A stretch of 64,000 bases of DNA from Thioalkalivibrio sp. XN279 (GTDB taxonomy: Bacteria; Pseudomonadota; Gammaproteobacteria; Steroidobacterales; XN24). The stretch's first letter is position 1. Every line of letters starts with the position of its first letter. Under the pieces are notes generated by a model that saw nothing but the letters and a program-made list of their open reading frames with translations, did no database searches and was not told where the DNA came from. The stretch covers positions 618,389-682,388 of the forward strand of contig NZ_JAANBD010000028.1 of the NCBI RefSeq assembly GCF_011089885.1, written 5' to 3'. A program made the position numbers and the translations under genes. This document shows, piece after piece, positions 50,157 through 53,239 of the stretch.

Positions 50157-50873
50157 TTGCCGGAGATCCGCACGCTCCACCTGCTGGAGGGCGCGCGCGC
50201 TGCGGCCGGGCTGGTGGTGGTCATCGACGTGTTCCGCGCCTTCACGCTGGCGCCCTGCGCTTTCGCCCGGGGCGCGCGCCGCATCCGCCTCGTCGCCACC
50301 GCGGAGGAAGCGCTTGCGCTGAAGGCGGCGGACCCCGGGCTGCTGCTCGCCGGGGAGCAGGACGGTCGCCCCTTGCCGGGCTTCGACTTTTCCAACTCGC
50401 CCGCCGCGATCCTGCGGGCGGATCTCGCCGGCCGCACGCTGGTGCTGCGGACCAGCGCCGGGGTCCAGGGCCTGCTGGCGGTCGACCCCCGCTGCGAGGT
50501 GCTTAGCGGCAGTTTCATCAACGCGGCTGCCACCGTGGCCTGGATCCGCGCCCGGCAACCGGAGGTGGTGTCGCTGGTGTGCATGGGCTGGAGCGCAGCC
50601 GAGCGCACCCCGGAGGACGAGGCCTGTGCGGCCTACCTTGCCGCCACCCTGGCCGGCGCATCGCCGGACTTCAGCCCGATCCCTGCGGCGCTGCGGCGCG
50701 AACCCTGCGGGGCCAAGTTCTTCGACCCGGCGCAGCCCTGGTTTCCGCCGGAGGACTTCGCGGTTTGCCTGCGCCTGTCGGAGCTGGATTTCGCGCTGCG
50801 CCGGGTGATCGATCCCGAGGGCCGGCCCTGGCTGGAGCGAGCGGCTGCCGCAGAGCCCCGCGTGGCGCTATAG
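50157..50873 (+). CDS. ComB-like 2-phosphosulfolactate phosphatase family protein
   Basis: 238 residues with ComB-family landmarks: VVVIDVFRAFTLAP near residues 20-33, GEQDGRPLPGFDFSNSP, and LRTSAGVQGL. ComB removes phosphate from 2-phosphosulfolactate in coenzyme M synthesis, but bacterial members are widespread without that pathway, and no other coenzyme M gene is here, so the substrate is unknown. The start is TTG at 50157 (LPEIRTLHLLEG); no ATG or GTG lies nearby. Confidence 0.78.
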   Translation: MPEIRTLHLLEGARAAAGLVVVIDVFRAFTLAPCAFARGARRIRLVATAEEALALKAADPGLLLAGEQDGRPLPGFDFSNSPAAILRADLAGRTLVLRTSAGVQGLLAVDPRCEVLSGSFINAAATVAWIRARQPEVVSLVCMGWSAAERTPEDEACAAYLAATLAGASPDFSPIPAALRREPCGAKFFDPAQPWFPPEDFAVCLRLSELDFALRRVIDPEGRPWLERAAAAEPRVAL

Positions 50874-50917: not shown

Positions 50918-51826
50918 ATGAGCAAGTCAGACAAGAAGAAGAAAAAGGCCCGCCCGGCACCCGCGGCCATTGCGGTCTGCCCGGTCCTCTCCCTAGCCAA
51001 CCTCTACGATCGCCCCCTGGGGCGGCCGGAGGCCTGGTACACGGCGAAGGGGCAGCTGAAGAACGGTCCCTACGAGCGCGAACTCGCCCAGCTGCAGGTC
51101 GAGCTGGTGAAGCTGCAGGAATGGGTGCGGCAAGAGAAGCGCAAGGTCGTCGTCATCTTCGAGGGGCGCGATGCGGCCGGCAAGGGCGGGGCCATCAAGC
51201 GGGTGGTCGAGAAGCTGAACCCGCGCGTGTGCCGGATCGCGGCCTTGCCGGTGCCGACGGAGCGGGAGCAGACGCAATGGTATTTCCAGCGCTACGTGAC
51301 GCACCTGCCCAGTGGCGGCGAGATCGTGCTGTTCGACCGCAGCTGGTACAACCGTGCGCTCGTCGAGCGCGTGATGGGCTTTTGCAGCGACAAGGAGTAC
51401 CAGGAGTTCGCCCGCGCGGTGCCTGAGTTCGAGCGCATGCTGGTCCGCTCCGGGACCATCCTGATCAAGTACTGGTTCTCGATCAGCGACGACGAGCAGG
51501 AGCGGCGCTTCCAGGCGCGGATCCATAATCCGCTCAAGCGCTGGAAGCTCTCCCCCATGGACCTTGAGTCACGGCGACTGTATCGCGAGTACTCGATCGC
51601 CAAGGACGAGATGATGGAGTTCTCCGATATCCCGGAGGCGCCTTGGTGGACGGTCCCGGCAGACGACAAGCGACGGGCGCGCCTGAACTGCATCGCCCAC
51701 CTCCTCTCCTGCGTCCCCTACGAGGACGTGATGCCGGACCCGCCGTCCCTGCCGCCGCGCGAGAAGGCGCCCGAGCATCGCCGGCCGCACGTGCAGCGGC
51801 AGAATTTCACTCCCATCATTTATTGA
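50918..51826 (+). CDS. ppk2: Polyphosphate kinase 2 family protein
   Basis: Transfers phosphate between polyphosphate and nucleotides, 302 residues. Walker A FEGRDAAGKGGAIKRV, the lid region with DRSWYNRALVERVMGF and the family block KYWFSISDDEQERRF are all present. A lysine-rich N-terminal tail precedes the domain. Nucleotide specificity (ADP or GDP) cannot be told from sequence. The ATG at 50918 is 7 bases after AAGGA. It precedes the ferritin-like gene by 25 bases. Confidence 0.93.
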   Translation: MSKSDKKKKKARPAPAAIAVCPVLSLANLYDRPLGRPEAWYTAKGQLKNGPYERELAQLQVELVKLQEWVRQEKRKVVVIFEGRDAAGKGGAIKRVVEKLNPRVCRIAALPVPTEREQTQWYFQRYVTHLPSGGEIVLFDRSWYNRALVERVMGFCSDKEYQEFARAVPEFERMLVRSGTILIKYWFSISDDEQERRFQARIHNPLKRWKLSPMDLESRRLYREYSIAKDEMMEFSDIPEAPWWTVPADDKRRARLNCIAHLLSCVPYEDVMPDPPSLPPREKAPEHRRPHVQRQNFTPIIY

Positions 51827-51851: not shown

Positions 51852-52154
51852 ATGTCTAACGAGGGTTACCACGAGCCGGTCGAGGAGCTGTCCGACGAGA
51901 CGCGGGACATGCACCGGGCCATCATCTCCCTGATGGAGGAGCTCGAAGCCGTCGACTGGTACAACCAGCGGGTAGATGCCTGCAAGGACGAGGAGCTCAA
52001 GGAGATCCTCGCGCACAACCGCGACGAGGAAAAGGAACACGCGGCCATGGTGCTGGAATGGATCCGGCGCCGCGACCCGTTCTTCTCCAAGGAGCTGAAG
52101 GAGCGCCTCTTCACTTCCGGGCCCATCGGGCACCACGAAGACGAGGACCACTGA
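51852..52154 (+). CDS. Encapsulated-ferritin (EncFtn) family protein without targeting peptide
   Basis: Two-helix ferroxidase subunit of 100 residues that in relatives assembles as a decameric ring inside an encapsulin. The ferroxidase residues known from Rhodospirillum EncFtn are present with a constant offset of two: Glu30, Glu60 and His63 at the di-iron site, Glu29 and Glu32 at the entry site, Trp36 and Tyr37. The protein ends in GPIGHHEDEDH, an acidic/His tail, with no encapsulin-targeting sequence, and no encapsulin gene is in the window. It lies between ppk2 and a membrane-protein gene four bases on. Confidence 0.88.
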   Translation: MSNEGYHEPVEELSDETRDMHRAIISLMEELEAVDWYNQRVDACKDEELKEILAHNRDEEKEHAAMVLEWIRRRDPFFSKELKERLFTSGPIGHHEDEDH

Positions 52155-52158
52155 GCAC

Positions 52159-52851
52159 TTGAGCGCGACGGCCGAGCCTCGCGAGAGCGCGCTGCTCTCG
52201 CTGGGCGTCAACATCGCCATCCCGGCGGTCATCCTGATGAAGCTGTCGGGAGAGGAAACGCTGGGCCCGGTCGGCGGCCTGCTGCTCGCGCTCGCCTTCC
52301 CGCTTGGCTACGGCGTGTGGGACTTCCACCGCCGCCGCGAGTGGAACTTCATTTCCGTGCTCGGCTTCGTCAGCATCCTGCTCACCGGCGGCATCGGCCT
52401 GCTGCAGCTGGATCCGAAATGGATTGCGGTCAAGGAGGCGGCGGTGCCGGGCGTGATCGGGCTGGCAGTGCTGTTTTCGCTCTACACGCGCTACCCGATC
52501 GTGCGCACCTTCCTCTACAACGACAAGATCATCCGCGTGGCGGAAGTCGACGCGGCGCTGGCGGAGCGCGGCAACCATCCCGCCTTCGAGCGCACGCTGG
52601 TGCACGCGTCATGGATGCTCGCGGCTTCTTTCTTCCTGTCATCGCTGCTGAATTTCGTGCTCGCCAAGCTCATCGTGCGGAGCCCGGCGGGCACGACGGC
52701 ATTCAACGAGGAGCTGGGCCGCATGACGGCGCTCTCCTACCCGGTGATCGTGATCCCGTCCATGGCGATCATGATCATCACCATGTGGTACCTCTTCAGC
52801 CGCATCCGCGGCTTGACGGGCATGGACCTGGAGCAGATCCTCAAGACCTGA
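52159..52851 (+). CDS. Multi-pass membrane protein, VC0807-like
   Basis: 230 residues with about five or six membrane helices. It resembles the VC0807 family (NIAIPAVILMKLSGEETLGPVGGLLLALAFPLGYGVWDF, then a late FLSSLLNFVLAKLIV block); function unknown. The start is TTG at 52159, four bases after the ferritin-like gene, so both are probably read from one transcript. Confidence 0.7.
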   Translation: MSATAEPRESALLSLGVNIAIPAVILMKLSGEETLGPVGGLLLALAFPLGYGVWDFHRRREWNFISVLGFVSILLTGGIGLLQLDPKWIAVKEAAVPGVIGLAVLFSLYTRYPIVRTFLYNDKIIRVAEVDAALAERGNHPAFERTLVHASWMLAASFFLSSLLNFVLAKLIVRSPAGTTAFNEELGRMTALSYPVIVIPSMAIMIITMWYLFSRIRGLTGMDLEQILKT

Positions 52852-52861
52852 GGAGGCAAAC

Positions 52862-53239
52862 ATGAACGGATTCCTGGTACGCATGCTGATCACCGCCATC
52901 TCATTGTGGCTCGCGGCCCTGGTGGTGCCGGGCATGCATCTTGCGGGCTTCGGCACCGTGCTCGGCGCGGCGCTGGTGCTCGGCATCGTCAATGCATTCG
53001 TGCGGCCGATCGTGATCCTGCTGACCCTGCCGCTGACCATCCTGACGCTCGGGCTGTTCCTGCTCGTGGTCAACGCCATGATGCTGGGCCTGGTCTCGGC
53101 GATGTTCAGCGGTTTCAGCATCAGCGGTTTCTGGAGCGCCATTTTCGGCGCCATCTTCGTCAGCTTCTTCAGCTGGCTGGCGTCGGCCTTCATCGGCCCG
53201 AGCGGACGCTACGAGGTGATGGTGGTGCGCCGCGACTAG
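52862..53239 (+). CDS. Phage-holin-4_2 (YvlD-like) family membrane protein
   Basis: 125 residues with four membrane helices. The sequence has the family's GIVNAFVRPIVILLTLPLTILTLGLFLLVVNAMML core. Despite the name, such genes are chromosomal and not phage lysis genes; no phage genes are nearby. GAGGAGG lies before the ATG, 10 bases after the preceding gene. Last gene of the probable ppk2-to-holin unit. Confidence 0.85.
   Translation: MNGFLVRMLITAISLWLAALVVPGMHLAGFGTVLGAALVLGIVNAFVRPIVILLTLPLTILTLGLFLLVVNAMMLGLVSAMFSGFSISGFWSAIFGAIFVSFFSWLASAFIGPSGRYEVMVVRRD

What the first reader, a model, noticed from the sequence alone, without database searches (positions are those of the whole stretch)
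51852..52154. EncFtn-type ferritin without encapsulin or targeting peptide, next to a PPK2 kinase
Seen: a 100-residue protein carrying every ferroxidase residue known for encapsulated ferritin (Glu29, Glu30, Glu32, Trp36, Tyr37, Glu60, His63), but the C-terminus is GHHEDEDH and stops there. Known: EncFtn relatives form an open ring with ferroxidase activity that cannot hold iron by itself and rely on an encapsulin shell reached through a C-terminal peptide. No shell gene is in this window. Inference: this may be a free-standing member with another way to hold or pass on iron, possibly with polyphosphate, since ppk2 is 25 bases upstream, or with the membrane protein four bases downstream.
Basis: partly seen in the sequence, partly recalled or inferred. 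Interest (0 to 1): 0.72.

Follow-up and report, generated by a model that had tools for sequence, protein, structure and literature searches.

The report
Ferritin-like iron oxidiser without shell
The gene encodes a small ring-type iron-oxidising protein from a known but uncharacterised family; a survey of about 175 genomes shows that this family normally occurs where no encapsulin shell gene exists, so the usual statement that such proteins need a shell cannot hold for it, while its position beside a polyphosphate kinase gene is only a local quirk.

Summary
Observation confirmed: 51852-52154 encodes a 100-aa EncFtn-like protein (PF22277, E 2e-43) with all seven named metal-site residues and no targeting peptide. 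Its own 99.9%-complete genome holds no Family 1 encapsulin. The protein is not a new type: its nearest solved relative is NE0167/3k6c, and it belongs to the class called 'Non-EncFtn' (He 2016) or 's-FLP' (Eren 2024). The 2024 review leaves open whether s-FLPs are encapsulated. I tested that. Of 160 genomes tallied as having only short-tailed EncFtn-like genes, 3 have an encapsulin, and one of these proved to carry its own tailed cargo gene. All 16 genomes with long-tailed cargo forms have one (p about 5e-20). In all four genomes where an s-FLP meets an encapsulin, a separate EncFtn-like cargo gene lies beside the shell. s-FLPs carry their own signature (Cys44 183/183, Asn38 182/183, His94 181/183). 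The ppk2 neighbour is conserved in the window's family (6/6) and absent from about 89 independently sampled loci, so polyphosphate is not supported as a family-wide mechanism. Most likely function: a soluble open-ring ferroxidase working without a shell, passing ferric iron to another cytosolic sink (bacterioferritin is present here). Biochemistry untested.

The parts
51852..52154 (+). short EncFtn-like ferroxidase (s-FLP / Non-EncFtn class), 100 aa
   Evidence: PF22277 and TIGR04535; nearest solved chain 3k6c; ferroxidase residues 29, 30, 32, 36, 37, 60, 63 conserved in nearly all 183 class members; AF2 helices 15-43, 47-74, 80-87
52122..52151 (+). C-terminal tail, residues 91-100 (PIGHHEDEDH): no encapsulin targeting peptide; holds class-conserved His94 and a His/Asp/Glu-rich extension typical of the window's family
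   Evidence: tails compared in 220 loci; His94 in 181/183 s-FLPs; disordered in the model, pLDDT about 40
51981..51983 (+). codon for Cys44, at the turn between helix 1 and helix 2; invariant in s-FLPs
   Evidence: 183/183 s-FLPs, 5/15 long-tailed cargo forms; sequence; helix end at residue 43
50918..51826 (+). ppk2, polyphosphate kinase 2; probably same transcript, 25 bp upstream
   Evidence: PF03976 E 4e-107, TIGR03707 above cut-off; adjacency conserved only in the window's family plus two scattered genomes
52159..52851 (+). VC0807-family membrane protein, 4 bp downstream
   Evidence: NF041646 204 bits, above cut-off; in three other genera of the family a FieF-like transporter sits between it and the ferritin-like gene
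52862..53239 (+). PF04020 small membrane protein (Phage_holin_4_2 family), end of the collinear run

Best explanation
The protein is an s-FLP: a two-helix EncFtn-like subunit that most likely assembles through its symmetric di-iron sites into an open (probably decameric) ring in the cytosol and oxidises Fe2+ without ever entering an encapsulin. Being an open ring it cannot hold a mineral core, so the ferric iron must pass to another sink. In this genome the likeliest sink is bacterioferritin; in lineages without cage ferritins it would be phosphate, other ligands or export. Shown here: family membership, intact ferroxidase residues, absence of shell and targeting peptide, class-wide independence from encapsulins by gene content, strong purifying selection, bacterioferritin in the genome. 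Inferred: ring assembly (from 3k6c), ferroxidase activity (from Rru EncFtn), a function in iron detoxification, and the fate of the iron.
For: Families and fold. No PF04454 in own genome. Short-tailed-only genomes 160, encapsulin in 3; long-tailed genomes 16, encapsulin in 16; Fisher p 4.8e-20. One of the three exceptions, G512, has its own tailed EncFtn beside the shell, so it belongs with the 'both' genomes G007, G022 and G557; that leaves 144 s-FLP genomes without a cargo form, none with an encapsulin. Conservation: 83% median amino-acid identity while fourfold-degenerate sites are 35% identical. Bacterioferritin in own genome. FieF-like cation exporter adjacent in three genera of the family, which fits an iron-detoxification setting.
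Against: No biochemistry on any s-FLP was found in the library searched. The published view is that EncFtn proteins require a shell to store iron (PMC7762939). Seven of 75 s-FLP genomes lack any PF00210 ferritin, bacterioferritin or Dps, so handing iron to bacterioferritin cannot be general. No Fur or OxyR motif was clearly enriched upstream, so iron regulation is not shown. FieF-like CDF exporters are not all iron-specific, and the two scanned hits score below the FieF equivalog cut-off.
Confidence: 0.62

Rival explanations
1. The protein is encapsulated after all: its short C-terminus is an unrecognised targeting peptide, or the shell is of an undetected type. This is the possibility left open in Eren 2024, which lists LFTD(E/N)KPIAHE as a putative, uncharacterised peptide.
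For: 3k6c forms a decamer like the encapsulated forms (PMC11202242); the C-terminal LF..PIAH segment is conserved in s-FLPs.
Against: No PF04454 in the own genome or in any of 144 s-FLP genomes that lack a tailed EncFtn; detection worked in all 16 genomes with tailed forms. Where both occur, the shell has its own cargo gene. PF19307 (Family 2 shell) is also absent from the own genome, but that search had no positive control.
Confidence: 0.04
2. The protein works with polyphosphate: Fe3+ made by the ring is bound by polyphosphate produced or remodelled by the neighbouring PPK2.
For: ppk2 is directly upstream in all six genomes of the family and in G020 (52% identity), which lacks any PF00210 ferritin; a more distant PPK2 gene follows in L107. 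In four Chromatiaceae loci pst-phoU genes precede it. Polyphosphate chelates iron in vivo in E. coli (title of PMC7387796).
Against: No ppk2, ppk1, ppx, pst or phoU gene near any of about 89 independently sampled loci, and one YjbB-like gene at 5.5 kb. PPK2 neighbours 8 of about 105 loci in the first set, six of them in one family. The window's genome has bacterioferritin.
Confidence: 0.1
3. The main role is removal of peroxide or oxygen (rubrerythrin-like) or redox sensing, with the invariant Cys44 taking part, rather than iron detoxification.
For: Cys44 is invariant in 183/183 s-FLPs but in only 5/15 cargo forms; it lies at the helix 1-2 turn. It is not known whether O2 or H2O2 is the preferred oxidant of EncFtn (PMC7762939).
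Against: No rubredoxin-like domain in the protein, no conserved redox partner among neighbours, no OxyR-like site enrichment. Cys44 also occurs in some encapsulated forms.
Confidence: 0.15

Closest known systems
NE0167 of Nitrosomonas europaea (PDB 3k6c), type of the s-FLP class (Eren 2024, PMC11202242)
   Same: about 80% identical, same length class, same fold, Cys44 and His94 present, no targeting peptide
   Different: NE0167 has Leu at position 36 where the window protein and nearly all other s-FLPs have Trp; the window tail is five residues longer and rich in His/Asp/Glu
Non-EncFtn group of He et al. 2016 (PMC5012862)
   Same: EncFtn-related proteins that lack the encapsulin targeting sequence
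   Different: defined there as a branch of a tree; its members were not tested against encapsulin presence in the passages read
Encapsulated ferritin EncFtn of Rhodospirillum rubrum (5da5) and Haliangium ochraceum (5n5f)
   Same: same two-helix fold and same di-iron, gateway and exit residues
   Different: those have a long disordered tail with a targeting peptide and a shell gene; the window protein and its genome have neither
Bacterioferritin/ferritin (PF00210)
   Same: ferritin-like superfamily di-iron chemistry
   Different: cage formers that hold iron themselves; encoded separately in this genome

Membership tests
EncFtn-like family (PF22277) | profile match above curated cut-off | tested here: met
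   146.3 bits against cut-off 27
EncFtn-like family (PF22277) | di-iron residues E30, E60, H63, W36, Y37 with gateway E29/E32 | tested here: met
   sequence, alignment to Rru EncFtn, conservation in 183 relatives
EncFtn-like family (PF22277) | two long antiparallel helices plus a short third | tested here: met
   AF2 model mean pLDDT 79; best Foldseek match 3k6c E 6e-8
EncFtn-like family (PF22277) | annular decamer assembled by iron, ferroxidase activity | not testable with these tools
   known for Rru EncFtn (PMC5012862); decamer in 3k6c (PMC11202242)
encapsulated ferritin (cargo EncFtn / FLP-TP) | C-terminal targeting peptide of the type SLGIGSL / LTVGSL | tested here: not met
   protein ends PIGHHEDEDH
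encapsulated ferritin (cargo EncFtn / FLP-TP) | Family 1 encapsulin gene in the genome, usually adjacent | tested here: not met
   no PF04454 in the 99.9%-complete genome
s-FLP / Non-EncFtn class | EncFtn domain of about 95-105 aa ending shortly after helix 3, no targeting peptide | tested here: met
   100 aa; 183 relatives of 94-110 aa
s-FLP / Non-EncFtn class | signature Asn38, Cys44, His94 (defined in this work) | tested here: met
   present in the window protein; 182, 183 and 181 of 183
s-FLP / Non-EncFtn class | not cargo of an encapsulin | tested here: met
   by gene content only; no pull-down possible

The most novel reading that the evidence does not exclude
s-FLPs are a widespread second mode of using the EncFtn fold: a shell-free ring ferroxidase with its own conserved Cys44/His94 chemistry. 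In the window's family it forms a compact iron-detoxification operon (ppk2 - s-FLP - fieF-like exporter - VC0807) in which ferric iron is bound by polyphosphate or exported instead of being stored in a protein cage.
Probability: 0.1. Interest if true: 0.75.

Novelty: new member of a known kind. Interest (0 to 1): 0.45.

Why it matters
Reviews describe EncFtn proteins as needing an encapsulin to hold iron, and the 2024 structural review leaves open whether the short forms are encapsulated. The genome survey answers that by gene content: the short forms occur almost only where there is no shell, and in the Pseudomonadota sample they outnumber tailed forms (19 genomes against 2, own genome included). 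Where the iron goes in a cell with an open-ring ferroxidase and no shell, in some genomes with no cage ferritin either, is then a direct experimental question, with a crystal structure (3k6c) already at hand.

Tried and rejected
Polyphosphate partnership as a general explanation: tested with PPK2 plus E. coli PPK1, PPX, PstSCAB, PhoU and YjbB over 214 loci; lineage-limited only. Conserved neighbours: clustering and Pfam tallies of adjacent same-strand genes gave no family present in more than 5 of 54 upstream or 2 of 43 downstream neighbours; the two largest ORF clusters are antisense shadows of the gene itself. Regulatory motifs (Fur, OxyR, IscR, FNR/CRP, NsrR, PhoB) upstream of 176 loci: only slight excess for Fur and FNR-like patterns, no consistent position, not used. 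Recent transfer as the reason for the high identity: rejected, synonymous sites are near saturation. A gene tree of 94 rows was poorly resolved (95 columns, long branches) and is not used for claims about how often the targeting tail was gained or lost. PF19307 in the own genome: no hit, but no positive control. No model coordinates were available, so the distance of Cys44/His94 from the di-iron site was not measured.

Full report
OBSERVATION. The ORF at 51852-52154 (+) encodes 100 residues, MSNEGYHEPVEEL...GPIGHHEDEDH, behind a clear ribosome-binding site. It matches Pfam EncFtn-like (PF22277, 146 bits, cut-off 27) and NCBIfam TIGR04535 'encapsulin-associated ferritin-like protein' (134.8 bits, cut-off 125). 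Glu29, Glu30, Glu32, Trp36, Tyr37, Glu60 and His63 are all present and align with Rru EncFtn Glu31, Glu32, Glu34, Trp38, Tyr39, Glu62, His65; the proposed exit-side residues of Rru EncFtn (His57, Glu61, Glu64; PMC5012862) correspond to His55, Glu59, Glu62 here and are also present. An AlphaFold2 model from 18 s-FLP sequences has helices 15-43, 47-74 and 80-87 and a disordered tail (mean pLDDT 79); its best structural match is 3k6c, followed by the encapsulated ferritins 5da5 and 5n5f. The 25-base gap to ppk2 and the 4-base gap to the next gene are as reported.

WHAT IT IS. The nearest solved protein is NE0167 of Nitrosomonas europaea (3k6c, about 80% identity, E 2e-46). He et al. 2016 already separated a 'Non-EncFtn' group 'lacking the encapsulin sequence' (PMC5012862). 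Eren et al. 2024 call these 's-FLP', note that 3k6c is a decamer, list LFTD(E/N)KPIAHE as a putative, uncharacterised targeting peptide, and leave open whether they are encapsulated (PMC11202242). The window protein is therefore a new member of a known but uncharacterised class.

TEST OF SHELL INDEPENDENCE. The window's genome (3.13 Mb, 99.9% complete) holds no PF04454 encapsulin; the same search rang in control genomes. I collected EncFtn-like genes from the window's relatives, a phylum-wide sample of 398 genomes, 80 loci with organism titles from genome contigs and two further orders, read their C-termini, and searched the carrier genomes for PF04454. In one search, 160 genomes were counted as holding only short-tailed forms (at most about 112 aa, no targeting peptide): PF04454 in 3. 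Sixteen genomes hold a long-tailed form: PF04454 in 16 (Fisher p 4.8e-20). For close relatives of the window protein (65% identity or more) the count is 1 of 145, against a background of 6 of 398 in the phylum. That single case (G512, Thiohalocapsa) turned out to have a separate tailed EncFtn, ending PGLTLGSLKPERR, directly beside its encapsulin. So it belongs with G007, G022 and G557, which also have an s-FLP and, elsewhere, an encapsulin with its own EncFtn-like cargo gene (in G007 only a fragment of it was seen). This leaves 144 s-FLP genomes without a cargo form, none with an encapsulin. The other two exceptions (G147, G167) carry a more distant short form (about 45% identity) on a different contig, or far away on the same contig, from the encapsulin. 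Limits: many genomes are metagenome bins; duplicates were removed only where identical genes were noticed; PF04454 covers Family 1 shells only, and the Family 2 search in the own genome had no positive control.

SIGNATURE AND SELECTION. Across 183 unique s-FLPs the metal-site residues are almost invariant, and three positions set the class apart: Cys44 (183/183; 5/15 in long-tailed forms), Asn38 (182/183; mostly Asp, Arg, His or Ala in long-tailed forms) and His94 (181/183; 3/15). Of these proteins, 125 are exactly 95 residues long. The window's longer tail HEDEDH is an acidic, His-containing elaboration resembling those of its family (HHDDDDH, HGDEEH, HHHD, HGHGHD). Median pairwise amino-acid identity is 83% while fourfold-degenerate sites are 35% identical, so purifying selection, not recent spread, explains the similarity across Alpha-, Beta-, Gamma- and Zetaproteobacteria.

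NEIGHBOURS. In the six genomes of the window's family that hold the gene the order begins ppk2 - s-FLP. In the window's genus VC0807 follows directly; in G003, G004 and G005 a FieF-like CDF cation exporter (two scanned: 376.8 and 359.8 bits, below the 420-bit equivalog cut-off) lies between. The window's genome has only 27%- and 35%-identical CDF matches elsewhere. Outside the family, PPK2 adjoins in L013 (G020, 52% identity) and L107 (Arsukibacterium, 31%), and pst-phoU genes lie upstream in four Chromatiaceae. In about 89 loci sampled independently from two other orders there is no ppk2, ppk1, ppx, pst or phoU gene near the gene, and one YjbB-like gene at 5.5 kb. No neighbour is conserved across the class. 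The ppk2 link is therefore a family-level arrangement; this does not refute a role for polyphosphate in that family, but gives it no class-wide support.

OTHER IRON STORES. The window's genome has a bacterioferritin (TIGR00754, 221.9 bits). Of 75 s-FLP genomes, 68 have a PF00210 protein; 7 have none, among them four genomes of family f55 (which includes a Zetaproteobacterium) and G020, which also has the ppk2 - s-FLP pair. Hand-over to bacterioferritin is thus possible here but cannot be the general rule.

MECHANISM. Shown: fold, intact di-iron site, no shell, no targeting peptide, class-wide shell independence by gene content, strong selection, bacterioferritin in the same genome. Inferred: iron-driven assembly into an open ring, Fe2+ oxidation in the cytosol, and delivery of Fe3+ to another sink. 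Published work on Rru EncFtn shows ferroxidase activity without mineral storage in the absence of the shell (PMC5012862), and a 2020 review states that all EncFtn proteins need encapsulin cages to hold mineral cores (PMC7762939). For s-FLPs that requirement cannot be met by the genome, so they must either not store iron or store it elsewhere.

VERDICT. The class is known; what is added here is the quantitative evidence that it is not encapsulin cargo, and the Cys44/Asn38/His94 signature.

Noticed in passing
L003:1813-2715, L004:1796-2719, L015:1829-2731: A FieF-like CDF cation exporter sits directly downstream of the s-FLP gene in three other genera of the window's family, between it and VC0807; the window's genus lacks it there and has no close copy elsewhere.
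   Followed up: partly
genomes G109, G160, G192, G196, G020, G749, G1033: Seven of 75 s-FLP genomes have no PF00210 ferritin, bacterioferritin or Dps at all, four of them from one family (f55) that includes a Zetaproteobacterium, so the s-FLP may be their only ferritin-like iron oxidiser of these kinds.
   Followed up: no
L131-L139, L225, L226, L228, L234, L235: More distant short EncFtn-like subfamilies without a targeting peptide exist (e.g. MASDNLHAPRERLS..., and MGFDQYHEPPEEL... at about 45% identity; genes of 42-48% identity lie on Bradyrhizobium-type plasmids); they keep the di-iron residues but vary at Cys44 and His94.
   Followed up: partly
L230 (G1051) and G998:C9:207586-207747: Two s-FLP-like genes appear broken by in-frame stops, suggesting occasional loss of the gene.
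   Followed up: no
L034, L043, L054, L077: In four Chromatiaceae the s-FLP gene follows a pst-phoU phosphate-uptake gene run, roughly 165-335 bp downstream of phoU.
   Followed up: partly
window 50157-50873: The gene before ppk2 encodes a 2-phosphosulpholactate phosphatase (PF04029) homologue well below all NCBIfam equivalog cut-offs.
   Followed up: no
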